DNA from: Syntrophomonadaceae bacterium
GTDB taxonomy: Bacteria > Bacillota > Syntrophomonadia > Syntrophomonadales > Syntrophomonadaceae
Length of the DNA stretch: 9,074 nt
Direction of reading: 5' to 3'
Assembly: GCA_031265005.1 (NCBI GenBank)
Contig: JAISDD010000184.1
Span: forward strand, 1-9,074
The notes beneath the pieces are model-generated. The model ran no database searches. It worked only from the letters and a program-made list of their open reading frames with translations, and was not told the DNA's origin. Below are positions 1,683 through 6,867 of the stretch, piece by piece. The stretch's first letter is position 1, and every line of letters starts with the position of its first letter. A program made the position numbers and the translations under genes.

Positions 1683-2522
1683 ATGACAGAACCAAACACA
1701 GTAAAACGCGTGGCGCTGTACACCCGTGTTAGCACACGTGAGCAGGCGCAGGAAGGCTTCTCCCTGGAAGCGCAGGAGAGGACATTGCGTGAATACTGTA
1801 CTCTAAAAGGCTGGGAAATCGTCAGAACATACAGCGATAAAGGAAAAAGCGCAAAAGACATCAAGCGCCGCTCCGATATGCTGAGATTGCTTGAAGACGT
1901 CAAAAAGAAAGAATTTGATATAGTCCTGGTCTGGAAGCTTACCCGCGCTACTCGCAGCTTAACGGACTTGTGTAAAATATGTGAAGTCTTTGAAAAGTAC
2001 GGCGCAGGGCTTGTAAGCAGCACAGAAGCTTTTGATACTGTTACCTCGACAGGGCGAATGATACTACATATTTTAGGAGTGATCGCCCAATTCGAGCTTG
2101 AAGTCATATCTGAAAACGTCAAGTTAGGGCTGTCCGAACGCGTCATGCAAGGCTTGCCTACCATGACCTATACGTTGGGTTACGACCGCTGCGGCGAAGA
2201 CATTTCCATAAACCAAAAAGAGGCAAAAATCGTAGAATTCATCTACAGTTATTATCTGGAATGTCAGAACATCAGCGAAGTTTCCCGCTCCTGCATCGCA
2301 AAAGGATACCGGGGCAAGAGAGGCGGCGTATTGACCCCAAACAGCGTTACGGTTATCCTGACAAGCTTTTCCTATTGCGGTTACAATAGCTTTAATAGAC
2401 AGCCCTACAAAGGCCAGCATGAGGCGATCATAAGCGCTGAGACTTACAATCGCGTTCAGCAATTGCTAGACGCCAGATTGGGCCGCCGCAAGCGTATCTA
2501 CCCGCTCGTCCTTCTTCCGTAA
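1683..2522 (+). CDS. Serine recombinase, short form (279 aa, no zinc ribbon)
   Basis: This protein should cut and rejoin DNA through a serine-DNA intermediate. Residues about 8-150 are the resolvase/invertase catalytic domain: YTRVSTREQAQEGFSLEAQ with the nucleophile Ser17, KLTRATRSL (arginine motif, usually KLDRLSRN) and GRMILHILGVIAQFELEVIS leading into the long E helix. Residues about 163-262 match the Recombinase domain (GYD through HEAIISAETYNRVQQLL). Large serine integrases then continue with a Cys4 zinc ribbon and coiled coil to about 450-600 residues. Here the frame ends at IYPLVLLP, where the ribbon would begin. No other frame downstream supplies the missing part, so it is truncated or a naturally short type. 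AAGGAG at 1666-1671 supports the start. It may be the phage integrase or a decayed one. Confidence 0.92.
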   Translation: MTEPNTVKRVALYTRVSTREQAQEGFSLEAQERTLREYCTLKGWEIVRTYSDKGKSAKDIKRRSDMLRLLEDVKKKEFDIVLVWKLTRATRSLTDLCKICEVFEKYGAGLVSSTEAFDTVTSTGRMILHILGVIAQFELEVISENVKLGLSERVMQGLPTMTYTLGYDRCGEDISINQKEAKIVEFIYSYYLECQNISEVSRSCIAKGYRGKRGGVLTPNSVTVILTSFSYCGYNSFNRQPYKGQHEAIISAETYNRVQQLLDARLGRRKRIYPLVLLP

Positions 2523-2939: not shown

Positions 2940-3191
2940 CTAATCCCTTCCAATGGATTGTTTCAGTTCTTTCAAATACTCGTCGGCCTTAATAGCCGCC
3001 CCGGTCACGCTATTATTCTTCCACCAAGCCGCGACCGCCGTACCAATAGTAATTCCTAACGCAAACAATTCTTCCGCCTGCTCGCTCGAAAACGGCAGCG
3101 GAGCCTTACCCAGCGCCGTCAGCACCTGATTAGTCAACGCCAGCACCAACACCACACTTCGAACCCAGGTTCCCTTAGCGATCATCTCCAT
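2940..3191 (-). CDS. Phage holin, SPP1 family
   Basis: Holins form lesions in the cytoplasmic membrane at a timed moment so that the endolysin reaches the wall. At 83 residues this has the SPP1-holin pattern: WVRSVVLVLALTNQVLTALGK as the first membrane helix, a short PLPFSSEQAEELF link, a second helix LGITIGTAVAAWWKNNS, and the charged tail KADEYLKELKQS. The first ATG is chosen because AGGGAGGTGAGAT precedes it directly at ideal spacing; the ATG two codons in is less well placed. The amidase it serves lies upstream, separated by the protease cassette and that cassette's terminator at 3215-3239. No promoter is seen between the terminator and this gene. Confidence 0.88.
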   Translation of the reverse strand: MEMIAKGTWVRSVVLVLALTNQVLTALGKAPLPFSSEQAEELFALGITIGTAVAAWWKNNSVTGAAIKADEYLKELKQSIGRD

Positions 3192-3214: not shown

Positions 3215-3239
3215 CAAAAAAACCACCCTTTCAGGCGGT
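3215..3239 (-). terminator. Terminator closing the aspartic-protease cassette
   Basis: On the minus strand ACCGCC, the loop TGAAAG and GGTGGT form a 6-bp stem with one G-T wobble, followed by TTTTTTTG. The G-T pair works only in the leftward transcript, which supports that direction. It separates the cassette at 3286-4128 from the holin gene. Confidence 0.75.
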
Positions 3240-3285
3240 CTTGGTTTCAATAATTTTCAGTTATCAGGGGATATTTTTCAGTATC

Positions 3286-3831
3286 CTAATTTCTACCACA
3301 ACAATGCTTAAACTTCTTTCCGCTTCCACAAGCACATAGTGCATTTCTTTCTTGTTTCTGAAGCACTCTTAATGGGGTTTTGTAAGTGTTTTTAACGAAA
3401 TCTATACTACCCAATGAAGGAATTCTAAAACTAAACATCGTTTTACCGTTATAGTTCGATACTGCAAAATCTCCCATACCTATAATATCCATTCCAACTA
3501 ACACATCGCAATTATGAGGCACCGCTTGGGTAACACGCACCCGTTTAATTTCAACATGATTAGGTAAGAACAAATTGACATAAAATTGATCACAGTCCAT
3601 TTCTCCGCTCGGTGTATGAGCTTTTATAACTGACACCACACGCAAACCTAAATCTTTAACAACTTTAGGGGTGATAACCGTAGATGTAGCCCCAGTATCC
3701 CATATTGCTTGATATTCATAGATAGGCGTATCATCATGTGATACTGCTTGGACTCCGATAGGACCACATAGCATGTTAGCCAATCCTGAGTATATGCTTG
3801 TAAAAGCACGATCATACCTATTTGACGCCAT
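3286..3831 (-). CDS. Retropepsin-like aspartic protease with C-terminal SEC-C zinc motif
   Basis: This is a probable cytoplasmic peptidase. AIWDTGATSTVI places the catalytic DTGA motif at Asp45. The second conserved element of this fold, DVLVGMDIIGMGDF, lies at about residues 109-122. A single catalytic Asp triad in about 140 residues implies a retropepsin-type homodimer. The last 20 residues are a SEC-C motif, CACGSGKKFKHCC (Cys166, Cys168, Cys177, Cys178), which binds zinc and in SecA and other proteins mediates contacts with ribosomes or other proteins. There is no signal peptide. It follows the 76-aa gene by eight bases with only a weak ribosome site, suggesting translational coupling. 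Promoter and terminator flank the pair, and its base composition is more AT-rich than the amidase and holin around it. Not a structural phage gene; a defence, exclusion or host-modifying moron is inferred, substrate unknown. Confidence 0.85.
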   Translation of the reverse strand: MASNRYDRAFTSIYSGLANMLCGPIGVQAVSHDDTPIYEYQAIWDTGATSTVITPKVVKDLGLRVVSVIKAHTPSGEMDCDQFYVNLFLPNHVEIKRVRVTQAVPHNCDVLVGMDIIGMGDFAVSNYNGKTMFSFRIPSLGSIDFVKNTYKTPLRVLQKQERNALCACGSGKKFKHCCGRN

Positions 3832-3839
3832 AATAATAG

Positions 3840-4070
3840 TTAAACCAAAGAAACATTAAATTGGTAGGACTGCACCAATTTAGACGGTGAATCAACGCAC
3901 TCTTGAATTATAAAGCTTCCTAGTTCTTCTTTTCTAGACACATCATCGAAAGCATCATCAAAGGATTTATAAGTTCCTAAAACTTTTTTGTTCTTTATTG
4001 CTATAAAGCAATGTCCATATTCTTTATAAAAGACCTCTAAGTTTTCTTGAAAATACTTATAATCTTCCAT
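3840..4070 (-). CDS. Small conserved-looking partner of the aspartic protease, 76 aa
   Basis: The protein begins with an acidic and aromatic helix (MEDYKYFQENLEVFYKEYG), then a compact beta-alpha-beta core, FIAIKNKKVLGTYKSFDDAF, and GSFIIQECVD. The pattern 'is-exposed-to, I-K-N-x-K-V-x-G-x-Y-x-S-x-x-x-A' resembles small proteins of the DUF5678 kind encoded beside aspartyl proteases; this recollection is not checked. A strong ribosome site AGGGAGG (4085-4079) lies eight bases before the ATG, and a consensus-like promoter lies just upstream. As the first gene of a two-gene transcript with the protease, it may be its substrate, inhibitor or targeting subunit. No membrane segment or catalytic motif is seen. 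Confidence 0.8.
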   Translation of the reverse strand: MEDYKYFQENLEVFYKEYGHCFIAIKNKKVLGTYKSFDDAFDDVSRKEELGSFIIQECVDSPSKLVQSYQFNVSLV

Positions 4071-4098
4071 GAGTAACGCCTCCCTAATTCGTAAATAG

Positions 4099-4128
4099 AT
4101 TATACCTTTTTTAAATACTTAGCGTCAA
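4099..4128 (-). promoter_or_regulatory. Sigma-A promoter of the protease cassette
   Basis: On the minus strand TTGACG (4128-4123) and a perfect TATAAT (4104-4099) are 18 bp apart, 11 of 12 consensus positions. It gives the two-gene cassette its own expression independent of the late operon. The rest of the 4129-4231 gap shows only A/T-runs and no clear terminator for the amidase. Confidence 0.8.
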
Positions 4129-4231: not shown

Positions 4232-4948
4232 TCAGTTATACAACCCCATTCGGTCATTGATCACCAGCACCCGCAGCATATCCCTACTTATGTCGATCTT
4301 CCCGTCATCTGGCACGGCCAGCAAGTCTTTGTCTATCAGCTTCTGAATTGTATCCCGCCCCCAATCTGCCGGCACATCCTCTATTTTTTCATACCTTACC
4401 ATATCGTCTTCTTCCTCCTTCCATTCTAATCCCAATCCTTTAAACAGCCCGCGCACGAGAGCCTGGCAATACTGCTCAAAATGTGCTTCCAGCATCTTCA
4501 CGTCAGCGGGATTATTAATAAACCCCATCTCCGCCAGCACCGCCCGCCCGCCGTTCGGCAGCGCTCCTAACTTTTGCACCTTTACCTTGCGGTCTATGGC
4601 CGGGGCCACTTTCAAAATCTCGCTCAGCACCGCTTGCGCTAAGCTCCGGTTGTTCTCCGTCTCAAACAGCACTTCCAGCCCTGTAGCTACGGCGACCGCC
4701 GAATTTAGGTGTATACTCAGCATAGCGCCGCAACCGGAAGCAATCTTACACCGTGCCGCCAAATCCAAGGCCTCCGTGCTGCCCAGCGAAACATCCGCGC
4801 TCCGCGTCAATACCGCCTCATGTCCCTGATCCGTCACGATCTGGGCCACCCTTAGCCCTAGCCGCAAAGTATAATCCTTCTCCCGGCGGACACCGCTCAC
4901 CGCTCCCGGATCCCAGCCCCCATGCCCTGGGTCAATACAAATCTTCAT
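4232..4948 (-). CDS. Endolysin: N-acetylmuramoyl-L-alanine amidase (Amidase_3)
   Basis: This zinc enzyme cuts the bond between N-acetylmuramic acid and L-alanine of peptidoglycan to lyse the cell. Residues 1-180 are the Amidase_3 fold: CIDPGHGGWDPGA (His9), Glu23 in RREKDY, SIHLN (His80) and the catalytic glutamate in AEMGFINN (Glu140). Residues about 186-238 (RYEKIEDVPADWGRDTIQKLI through DRMGLY) form the C-terminal segment common in clostridial and negativicute phage lysins, probably for wall binding. There is no signal peptide, so release needs the holin at 2940-3191. The start chosen is the ATG six bases after GGGAGGTGAT (4962-4953); the frame stays open to an earlier ATG at 4984, which would overlap the terminator at 4985-5008. 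That terminator lies immediately upstream and no promoter fits between, so expression must pass it. Confidence 0.93.
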   Translation of the reverse strand: MKICIDPGHGGWDPGAVSGVRREKDYTLRLGLRVAQIVTDQGHEAVLTRSADVSLGSTEALDLAARCKIASGCGAMLSIHLNSAVAVATGLEVLFETENNRSLAQAVLSEILKVAPAIDRKVKVQKLGALPNGGRAVLAEMGFINNPADVKMLEAHFEQYCQALVRGLFKGLGLEWKEEEDDMVRYEKIEDVPADWGRDTIQKLIDKDLLAVPDDGKIDISRDMLRVLVINDRMGLYN

Positions 4949-5348: not shown

Positions 5349-6518
5349 TTAACAAATCACCAGCGAGCCTTGTATAAAATCCGTGGGAAGCTCCTTCGAA
5401 AAAAAAGTCATAAGATTATCGGCCTTCATCTTACCAGTCATTAACAGCCCGGCGGCCTGTGCTATAACACCCCCGTCCGCGTCTAAACATAATTGAAAAT
5501 AATGTTTGGGTATAGAATTCAATTTCACATTTTCCACCCATACCGTTTGCTCATAACCATACCCCTCATAAACACTAGAAGCCGTCCAGCTACCTACTGA
5601 AAAAGATACTAGAGTGGCGCTTATACCGGTGTAACGCTGAGAGACTAGATAAAAAGCAGTGCCATTGTACACCACTTGATAAATCTGATTATTTAATAAC
5701 AAAAACCAACTAATGGAAGCATCCATGGAAAAAGAGTCCACGCCGTCAAAATAATATACCTTTTTATCCCCTAAACCATTGACGTTCACAGTGACGCCGC
5801 CTCCGACCAAAGCCGCAGTCGACCTGATAGAAATCACCTTATTAACCAACTGACTGTAATCAGTTACCCCTGGTATAGTCACATTCCGGTACATCGAACC
5901 CATCCCCTGGCTGTCGGGATAAACGACGCTCCCAAAATTGCCGCCCAAGGCCGCTATCTCCTCGCGCAGTTCCCCCTCCACCTCCGACAAATTCTTATAC
6001 CCGAGAACTTCCTCCTCAACCAGTTGCCACCTACTCTCCCAGGTCCAGTTAATCCCAAAAAAATTCCCTAGCGTCTCCCAATCCCCACTTATCCGCTTAT
6101 TAACCACACAATTCCCGTCCTCGTCCAACCCTATCCAGCCGCCGTTCCCCCCATCATAAATAACCTCGCCAAACTCAAAAGCGTCCCCCGCCTCGTTGAG
6201 CTTAGCGTAACCTATAACAACAGCATTCACGACGCCGTCATTCCTAAACATCCCGAACATATTAAACTCATCATCCACCGTCAGAAACTGCCCGCTGAAC
6301 TCGACTGCCACGAACGGGGCAGGCGTCTTAACAAAATGCAGCTTAGTCCCTGGAGCGATATCATACGGCGTTGGAACGGGCACATAACCCCCTTCACGTT
6401 CGACAAACGGCACCTTATCCGCCTTACCCTCCAGCGCCGCCGGGTTCCCTCCAGCGTTGCCGGGTCCACCGGAATATGGGGCATAAAAACATTGTTTATC
6501 TAGCCTGGTAAAAAGCAA
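5349..6518 (-). CDS. Tail fibre-like phage protein, 389 aa
   Basis: This is probably a virion tail tip or fibre component that contacts the host. It is rich in glycine, aromatic residues and short beta strands. A short helical coil, LSEVEGELREEIAAL, at about residues 177-191 looks like a trimerisation segment. Residues about 245-295 contain VNVNGLGDKKVYY and YQVVYNGTAFYLVS, the 'NVNGLG...YNGTxF.L' repeat typical of tail fibres. The start is a TTG six bases after GGAGGG at 6530-6525, immediately after the stop of the upstream gene. The frame is open further upstream, but the 17 extra residues (basic and hydrophobic) would overlap that gene and lack a ribosome site. The C-terminal 90 residues are unlike known domains and may be the receptor-binding or chaperone part. 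Confidence 0.8.
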   Translation of the reverse strand: MLFTRLDKQCFYAPYSGGPGNAGGNPAALEGKADKVPFVEREGGYVPVPTPYDIAPGTKLHFVKTPAPFVAVEFSGQFLTVDDEFNMFGMFRNDGVVNAVVIGYAKLNEAGDAFEFGEVIYDGGNGGWIGLDEDGNCVVNKRISGDWETLGNFFGINWTWESRWQLVEEEVLGYKNLSEVEGELREEIAALGGNFGSVVYPDSQGMGSMYRNVTIPGVTDYSQLVNKVISIRSTAALVGGGVTVNVNGLGDKKVYYFDGVDSFSMDASISWFLLLNNQIYQVVYNGTAFYLVSQRYTGISATLVSFSVGSWTASSVYEGYGYEQTVWVENVKLNSIPKHYFQLCLDADGGVIAQAAGLLMTGKMKADNLMTFFSKELPTDFIQGSLVIC

Positions 6519-6537
6519 ATTGATCCCTCCTATAATT

Positions 6538-6867
6538 CTAACTATTACGCGCCACAATCTCCCTATCATGTTCTTTGATCTTCCCTTCTACCGTCTGCAA
6601 AGCATTGAACGCTTCCTCCAGTTCCCCGTTAGGCGTTCCGGTTACGATAGCCCGGTGCAGCCAGAACAAAACCCTCCCCTGGGCGTGATGAAGCTCATCT
6701 TCCAGCCTGGCCCTTAGCAGACGGTTTTGCGTTCTCAGCGCCCTCACTTCTTCACTGGCCGATAGTTTTTGTTCCAGCCAGCGGCGTATAAAATAAAGGG
6801 CGATGCCGATGATTCCGGAACCGCCCAATACTGCCGCTATTATGATTTGCAAGACGTTATTCGTCAT
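6538..6867 (-). CDS. Membrane-anchored coiled-coil protein, 109 aa
   Basis: One membrane helix at residues 5-27 (VLQIIIAAVLGGSGIIGIALYF) is followed by RR and a long charged helix, EEVRALRTQNRLLRARLEDEL, and a second helical stretch ending in KIKEHDREIVARN. The layout, a short N-terminal anchor plus coiled coil, resembles phage XhlA-like or antiholin-like accessory lysis proteins and also some tail-associated membrane proteins; no family is certain. Its ATG overlaps the end of the 28-aa ORF by 11 bases and has no strong ribosome site of its own, indicating translational coupling. Its stop is followed directly by the ribosome site of the tail protein gene. Confidence 0.75.
   Translation of the reverse strand: MTNNVLQIIIAAVLGGSGIIGIALYFIRRWLEQKLSASEEVRALRTQNRLLRARLEDELHHAQGRVLFWLHRAIVTGTPNGELEEAFNALQTVEGKIKEHDREIVARNS

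What the first reader, a model, noticed from the sequence alone, without database searches (positions are those of the whole stretch)
3215..4128. Autonomous cassette of a 76-aa protein and a retropepsin-like protease with SEC-C motif inside the lysis module
Promoter, two coupled genes and terminator form a closed unit between the endolysin and the holin, more AT-rich than both. An aspartic protease (DTGA) joined to a zinc SEC-C motif is not a virion or lysis function. Its placement is typical of morons expressed from a resident phage, so defence, superinfection exclusion or host modification is possible. Function and substrate are unknown, and this is the best candidate here for an undescribed system.
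Basis: partly seen in the sequence, partly recalled or inferred. Interest (0 to 1): 0.78.

Follow-up and report, generated by a model that had tools for sequence, protein, structure and literature searches.

The report
Prophage HIV-like protease with partner gene
Between the two cell-bursting genes of a bacterial virus lies a two-gene unit, a predicted protease built like HIV's plus a small companion protein, which recurs as a side-by-side pair in phages and in bacteria of more than 20 phyla and likely works as a switchable weapon that protects the host cell or its resident virus.

Summary
Between endolysin and holin lies a separate AT-rich unit: sigma-70-type promoter, Shine-Dalgarno, 76-aa ORF, 181-aa retropepsin with SEC-C tail, terminator. 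The main result could not be seen from the sequence alone: the two genes are one conserved module. A homologue of the small ORF lies directly upstream of the protease in 155 of 161 loci with a protease ORF (78 of 78 bacterial contigs, 74 of 79 viral, 3 of 4 other). Searched the other way, in 247 genomes of one phylum, the small protein occurs at 10 places: 8 are followed by a retropepsin, 2 by short ORFs that look like broken ones. Asp45 is kept wherever that column is present. The C-terminal tail is mostly basic even without the zinc motif. Copies are sporadic, mix between phages and bacterial contigs, and have no fixed place in phages. The nearest described thing is PADLOC's two-gene candidate PDC-M08 (small protein plus shorter retropepsin); the window's small protein does not match its A model. 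My searches found no paper on either. Best reading: a mobile, partner-controlled protease, probably for defence or addiction. Function, substrate and the partner's role are untested.

The parts
4099..4128 (-). sigma-70-type promoter of the unit, TTGACG-18-TATAAT
   Evidence: 11 of 12 consensus bases; reached in 2 of 1000 shuffles of the intergenic stretch
4079..4085 (-). Shine-Dalgarno AGGGAGG of the small ORF
   Evidence: sequence
3840..4070 (-). 76-aa partner protein, remote DUF5678-like; helices, beta hairpin, helix, strand, low-confidence C-terminal tail
   Evidence: homologue directly upstream of the protease in 155 of 161 loci; model pLDDT 84; 50 of 70 family members hit PF18929 at E up to 0.1, the window's own protein only at 13.2 bits, below the 23.2 cut-off
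3286..3831 (-). 181-aa retropepsin-like aspartic protease with SEC-C tail
3697..3699 (-). codon of predicted catalytic Asp45 in IWDTGAT
   Evidence: D in 157 of 161 aligned copies, gap in the other 4
3292..3348 (-). SEC-C zinc motif, residues 162-180
   Evidence: PF02810 34.1 bits; CxC...(C/H)(C/H) motif in 104 of 161 copies
3219..3242 (-). intrinsic-terminator-like hairpin followed by a T run
   Evidence: -13 kcal/mol, z -2.5
4232..4948 (-). flank: amidase_3 endolysin
   Evidence: PF01520 112 bits, phrog_435
2940..3191 (-). flank: SPP1-type holin
   Evidence: PF04688 97 bits, TIGR01592

Best explanation
The unit is a two-gene module found in phages and on bacterial contigs, in which a small protein made first likely holds or aims a predicted dimeric HIV-type aspartic protease that would cut a cell or phage protein when triggered, as in toxin-antitoxin or abortive-infection systems. 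Shown: the pair and its order, the retropepsin sequence motifs, the conserved Asp45, a tail that is mostly basic with or without the zinc motif, sporadic distribution, intermixing of viral and bacterial copies, a promoter-like and a terminator-like site around the unit in the window. Inferred from family knowledge: two copies must dimerise to build the active site, each giving one Asp. Inferred: the partner binds and restrains or directs the protease (its gene comes first, with a strong ribosome site here, and it has a C-terminal tail that is conserved in most relatives although low-confidence in the model, which could lie in the active-site cleft as pseudosubstrate or substrate). Inferred: the basic/SEC-C tail brings the protease to ribosomes or nucleic acid. 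Inferred: the benefit is protection of the host or of the resident prophage.
For: Pairing: 155 of 161 loci with a protease ORF. Reverse test in 247 genomes of one phylum, the centre genome (chosen for having a pair) included: 10 small-protein loci, 8 followed by a retropepsin ORF with a profile hit, 2 by short ORFs that look by eye like broken retropepsins but have no profile hit. In 40 genomes known to hold a pair, 45 of 48 small-protein hits have a protease within 300 bases downstream; of the other three, two lie within 240 bases of a contig end and one is partial. Distances in the two families correlate over 149 pairs: r 0.41, largest of 500 shuffles 0.14. Asp45 conservation. Fold. A Shine-Dalgarno of 4 or more bases precedes the small gene in 56 and the protease gene in 21 of 112 scorable pairs of 149, as expected if the small protein is made first or in excess. 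Mixing: the fewest viral/bacterial label changes on a 141-row tree is 34 (47 in shuffles; well-supported branches alone force 6); 23 phylum-level groups by record title. Defence link: the pair of the same plan is listed as candidate PDC-M08; the nearest larger genes of the bacterial copies match 83 PADLOC models, with type I and II methylases, a type II restriction enzyme, AbiD, PDC-S22, PDC-M13A/B, PDC-M24A and PDC-M10A among the 25 shown, against 21 models, mostly generic, for 132 control genes. Tails: mean charge of the last 20 residues +4.0 with and +5.4 without the zinc motif, body 20-mers -0.2.
Against: No assay of any kind. The same pair structure fits a regulator, or a protease whose substrate is the partner. 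The neighbour comparison counts models, not proteins (many methylase models overlap on one gene), and the control (132 genes from 35 stretches of the first 40 genomes, where the tested genes come from 78 loci) is not well matched, so the enrichment is a hint. Most Pfam families among the neighbours are ordinary, such as response regulators (first 25 of 131 shown). The window's own proteins do not match PADLOC's pair convincingly (no A hit; B at E 7e-4). Contigs called bacterial may be unrecognised prophages. Tree support is thin (19 of 138 inner branches starred). Orphans of either gene are rare, so they do not tell an inhibitor from an activator. The window's own partner tail departs from the consensus.
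Confidence: 0.45

Rival explanations
1. A stress or growth regulator without defence role: the protease trims a ribosome-bound or nucleic-acid-bound host protein, as RimB trims ribosomal protein S6 (RpsF), and the partner sets its activity or is itself the processed product.
For: RimB is a bacterial retropepsin that acts on the glutamate tail of RpsF (PMC11957791, abstract and passages seen); the tail here is mostly strongly basic; the bacterial copies often sit among ordinary genes.
Against: Sporadic presence: only the own genome of 101 in the relatives search, 9 of 247 in another phylum; many phage copies; viral and bacterial copies intermixed. No ATP-grasp gene among the ten window proteins scanned.
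Confidence: 0.2
2. A phage head-maturation protease that cleaves capsid proteins, as retroviral protease does, with the partner as a scaffold-like factor.
For: In L121, L122 and L166 the protease follows two shared genes of about 480 and 516 aa that I take, by order and look, for portal and minor head proteins; one search finds minor-head and head-morphogenesis families among the viral neighbours without naming the member. 0 of 12 virus records searched hold a Peptidase_S49 match; other prohead protease families were not searched.
Against: Here it sits between endolysin and holin; elsewhere neighbours are integrases (8 of 130) and repressors (7 of 130). 9 of 27 scored records have it within 5 kb of the integrase, 5.3 expected at random: no fixed place. 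At least 470 relatives lie on bacterial contigs. L166, one of the three head-type cases, lacks the partner.
Confidence: 0.1
3. A phage counter-defence protease that destroys a host immune protein.
For: Phage-borne copies; compact accessory cassette.
Against: Relatives are at home on bacterial contigs of many phyla, where counter-defence would not pay unless inside mobile elements.
Confidence: 0.1
4. A plain addiction (toxin-antitoxin) module that only stabilises its carrier, without phage protection.
For: Gene order, size and closeness as in type II modules; five pairs in one genome (G291).
Against: The small protein has no match to a DNA-binding family; its profile's best PDB sequence match is an RpiR-family regulator domain at only E 0.007. 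Toxicity untested.
Confidence: 0.15

Closest known systems
PADLOC candidate system PDC-M08 (PDC-M08A + PDC-M08B)
   Same: Small protein of about 85 aa followed by a single-domain retropepsin of about 128 aa (seen by motif in 10 of the 15 fetched M08A loci). Retropepsins alike by profile: hhalign probability 95%. Small proteins possibly alike: 76%, over 39 columns.
   Different: M08B lacks the C-terminal GDFAVSN...PS..IDF block and SEC-C of this family; the window's small protein has no M08A hit at E up to 1 and only 2 of 70 family members do.
Retropepsins of bacteria: Rickettsia APRc; RimB/RloA
   Different: RimB and RloA are described in operons with an ATP-grasp enzyme, and RloA is secreted (PMC11957791 and PMC12239564, passages seen); the passages seen mention no DUF5678-type partner, and SEC-C does not occur in the text of PMC12239564.
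Lit protease of prophage e14 (recalled, no call)
   Same: Prophage-borne protease that blocks another phage by cutting a host translation factor: the working analogy.
   Different: Recalled as a zinc protease acting as a single gene; no homology tested.
SEC-C tail of SecA / YchJ
   Same: Same zinc motif.
   Different: Here joined to a protease, and missing in many phage copies while the tail stays basic.

Membership tests
Retropepsin-like aspartic proteases (A2 type) | Asp-Thr/Ser-Gly active site | tested here: met
   IWDTGAT; Asp45 kept in 157 of 157 copies with that column
Retropepsin-like aspartic proteases (A2 type) | hydrophobic-hydrophobic-Gly motif after the flap and a single-lobe beta fold | tested here: met
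Retropepsin-like aspartic proteases (A2 type) | homodimer and peptide-bond cleavage | not testable with these tools
   no complex prediction or assay
SEC-C motif proteins | PF02810 above its cut-off | tested here: met
   34.1 bits against 20.4
DUF5678 (PF18929) | score above Pfam cut-off | tested here: not met
   window protein 13.2 bits against 23.2; relatives: 50 of 70 hit at E up to 0.1, best 9e-11
PDC-M08 | partner matches PDC-M08A | tested here: not met
   no hit at E up to 1; 2 of 70 family members, best 6e-4
PDC-M08 | protease matches PDC-M08B | tested here: inconclusive
   E 7e-4 for the window; 42 of 80 members hit one M08B model at E up to 0.01, best 9e-8
PDC-M08 | small gene directly before the retropepsin gene | tested here: met
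   same order at the 10 M08 loci where the retropepsin was seen
Type II toxin-antitoxin module | two small adjacent genes found together | tested here: met
   155 of 161 loci
Type II toxin-antitoxin module | toxicity relieved by the partner | not testable with these tools
   no assay
Anti-phage defence system | reduced phage plating | not testable with these tools
   no assay; neighbour comparison only a hint
RimB/Rlo operons | ATP-grasp (RimK/RloC) partner gene nearby | tested here: not met
   none among ten window proteins scanned against Pfam

The most novel reading that the evidence does not exclude
A new class of bacterial and phage immunity whose executioner is an HIV-type protease: a DUF5678-like partner keeps the retropepsin dimer silent through its conserved C-terminal tail until infection, and a basic zinc tail places it on the translation machinery; PDC-M08 would be a shorter branch of the same class.
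Probability: 0.3. Interest if true: 0.87.

Novelty: new variant of a known kind. Interest (0 to 1): 0.66.

Why it matters
The bacterial retropepsins met in the papers seen (APRc, RimB, RloA) are single cases; here a retropepsin with a nearly invariable partner is found in 23 phylum-level groups (by record title) and in many phages. My searches found no paper on it: searches returned nothing; (DUF5678) one paper on clubroot by its title; some searches returned lists of which only the top was seen; preprints are not held. If it is an immune or addiction module, a retropepsin as the effector would be a kind that I recall from no described system (not searched exhaustively). The question can be put to a direct test with two short genes and one catalytic residue, and it would give a function to part of the DUF5678 family and to a PADLOC candidate.

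Tried and rejected
Single-sequence search with the 76-aa protein found only itself, and the phage collection gave nothing: the partner family became visible only by reading next to protease homologues. A profile search then gave 1728 small proteins at E up to 0.001.

Empty-site test of the cassette: no close relative of this prophage was found. Endolysin: 26 viral loci, 29-43% identical apart from one 18-residue match, and 2 of the other 60 genomes searched; none of these has an ORF like the window's holin or protease (phmmer/hmmsearch). The 81-aa gene: no relative in viral contigs. So insertion into an older lysis module is not shown.

Integrase-end location: 9 of 27 scored records against 5.3 expected (of the 29 records with a tyrosine integrase match, L098 and L136 with several were left out): not a rule. 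The TerL search over 50 records hit 8, 4 over the cut-off, and was not used.

Unpaired proteases: L107, L160 and L161 (same ORF coordinates relative to each other and same upstream gene), L166 (more divergent), and two loci cut near the contig start (L006, L145). Three loci without a complete protease ORF (L051, L086, L120) and two SEC-C-only matches (L002, L003) were left out of the 161. Six of the 155 overlap by more than the 60 bases first allowed, because the longest ORF was taken.

Full report
WHAT IS THERE. The window (a 9,074-base contig of a 1.6-Mb draft genome, 77% complete) holds part of a temperate phage: genes with tail-family matches, endolysin, holin and a serine-type integrase reading the other way, and two short ORFs that look like HTH repressors by eye (not scanned). 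Whether it is integrated is not shown, as no host gene was identified on the contig. Between endolysin and holin lies the reported unit. Its parts are confirmed: promoter 11 of 12 (2 of 1000 shuffles), Shine-Dalgarno, 76-aa ORF, 181-aa ORF 8 bases on, terminator-like hairpin. The unit's genes have 30.3% and 38.5% GC against 55% and 52.4% for the genes beside it.

THE PARTNER. Alone, the 76-aa protein finds nothing. Reading next to relatives of the protease changes this: a Leptospira phage record carries an 80-aa ORF of the same pattern right before an unannotated 183-aa retropepsin ORF. Over 80 bacterial and 80 viral loci plus the window and three phage records, an iterated profile finds the partner directly upstream of the protease in 155 of 161 loci with a protease ORF: 78 of 78 on bacterial contigs, 74 of 79 viral, 3 of 4 other. 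Of 149 strictly scored pairs, 66 overlap, 77 lie 0-35 bases apart and 6 further. The reverse test starts from the small protein: in 247 genomes of one phylum (the centre genome, chosen for having a pair, included) 9 carry it at 10 places; 8 are followed by a retropepsin ORF with a profile hit and 2 by short ORFs that look by eye like broken retropepsins. In 40 genomes known to hold a pair, 45 of 48 small-protein hits and 45 of 48 protease hits lie together; the three lone proteases are partial and weak (E 3e-5 to 6e-4). Distances between copies correlate in the two families (149 pairs, r 0.41, best of 500 shuffles 0.14). The partner's model (pLDDT 84) has helices, a hairpin and a helix, with a low-confidence C-terminal stretch that is nevertheless conserved in most relatives (YTQ-x-F-H-S-R-V-x-F); the window's own tail departs from it.

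THE TAIL. A CxC...(C/H)(C/H) motif is present in 104 of 161 copies: 69 of 78 bacterial, 34 of 79 viral, 1 of 4 other. Where it is missing the tail is still mostly basic: mean charge of the last 20 residues +5.4 (36 copies, at least two of which keep part of the motif) against +4.0 with the motif (97 copies) and -0.2 for body segments; +3 or more in 30 of 36, 88 of 97 and 11 of 161; 28 of 161 copies were not scorable. I read this as binding to ribosomes or nucleic acid rather than zinc as such (inference).

DISTRIBUTION. In the relatives search (101 genomes) only the own genome has a hit stronger than E 2e-8; the listed others cover only the SEC-C end, mostly in SecA-sized frames (list cut). 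Bacterial copies come from 23 phylum-level groups by record title, mostly draft genomes, so some may be misbinned and some may be prophages. On a 141-row tree the viral/bacterial label changes at least 34 times (shuffles 47; well-supported branches alone force 6; 19 of 138 inner branches starred); the window's copy falls in a starred set of 15 (12 bacterial, 3 viral) and its nearest rows are from Bacillota, Synergistota and Spirochaetota. In viral contigs the nearest larger genes include integrases (8 of 130), repressors (7 of 130), anti-repressors and head genes; 29 of 50 records sampled have a tyrosine integrase match. There is no fixed position. So the unit behaves as a roaming accessory pair.

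DEFENCE LINK. PADLOC's candidate PDC-M08 has the same plan: small A, then a retropepsin B of about 128 aa. PDC means phage defence candidate (PMC11514479, passages seen). Profile comparison links the proteases clearly (95%) and the small proteins weakly (76%). The window's partner does not match the A model, so I do not file it as PDC-M08. The nearest larger genes of the bacterial copies (132) match 83 PADLOC models, with restriction-modification, AbiD and several PDC proteins among the 25 shown; 132 control genes match 21 models, mostly generic. This counts models, not genes, and the control is not well matched, so it is a hint.

HOW IT LIKELY WORKS. The partner gene comes first and more often has a Shine-Dalgarno (56 against 21 of 112); in the window I see none before the protease. 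This fits a partner made early and in excess that restrains or directs the protease. When the balance is upset, for instance by an incoming phage, the protease dimer would cut a target near the ribosome or on nucleic acid. The working analogy is the prophage protease Lit (recalled). Rivals are a regulator like RimB, a head-maturation protease in some phages, counter-defence, or plain addiction.

LITERATURE. Ten searches of the held library were made. Searches returned no paper; (DUF5678) one on clubroot by its title; some searches returned 4, 759, 25 and 8,007 papers, of which 4, 20, 8 and 5 were listed. No listed paper describes this pair by title or abstract start. The PADLOC papers gkac400 and gkab883 do not mention PDC in the main text (find only). 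No preprints are held, so a description there cannot be excluded.

Noticed in passing
window 1683-2522 (+): Serine-type integrase of only 279 aa: its match ends at position 370 of the 651-position phrog_95 profile, so the gene looks cut short, just before the spacer next to the lysis genes.
   Followed up: no
L004 5980-6531 (KF114879.1); also L005: Leptospira phage records leave the retropepsin ORF (183 aa in L004) unannotated, although it directly follows its annotated partner gene.
   Followed up: yes
L121 5753-6477, L122, L166: Protease lies right after two genes of about 480 and 516 aa that look like portal and minor head proteins (by order and look; not assigned by a call), the usual place of a head-maturation protease, unlike in the window.
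   Followed up: partly
G291 contigs C71, C72, C80, C91 (Fibrimonadales draft genome of L043): Five pairs in one genome, two of them in tandem on C91.
   Followed up: partly
L167-L181: PDC-M08A occurs in 17 of 199 genomes of the window's phylum, five matches in one genome; the window's own family was seen only in the own genome of 101 in a different, overlapping sample.
   Followed up: partly
window 5349-6569 (-): 406-aa gene before the endolysin without any Pfam or PHROG match at E up to 0.1.
   Followed up: no
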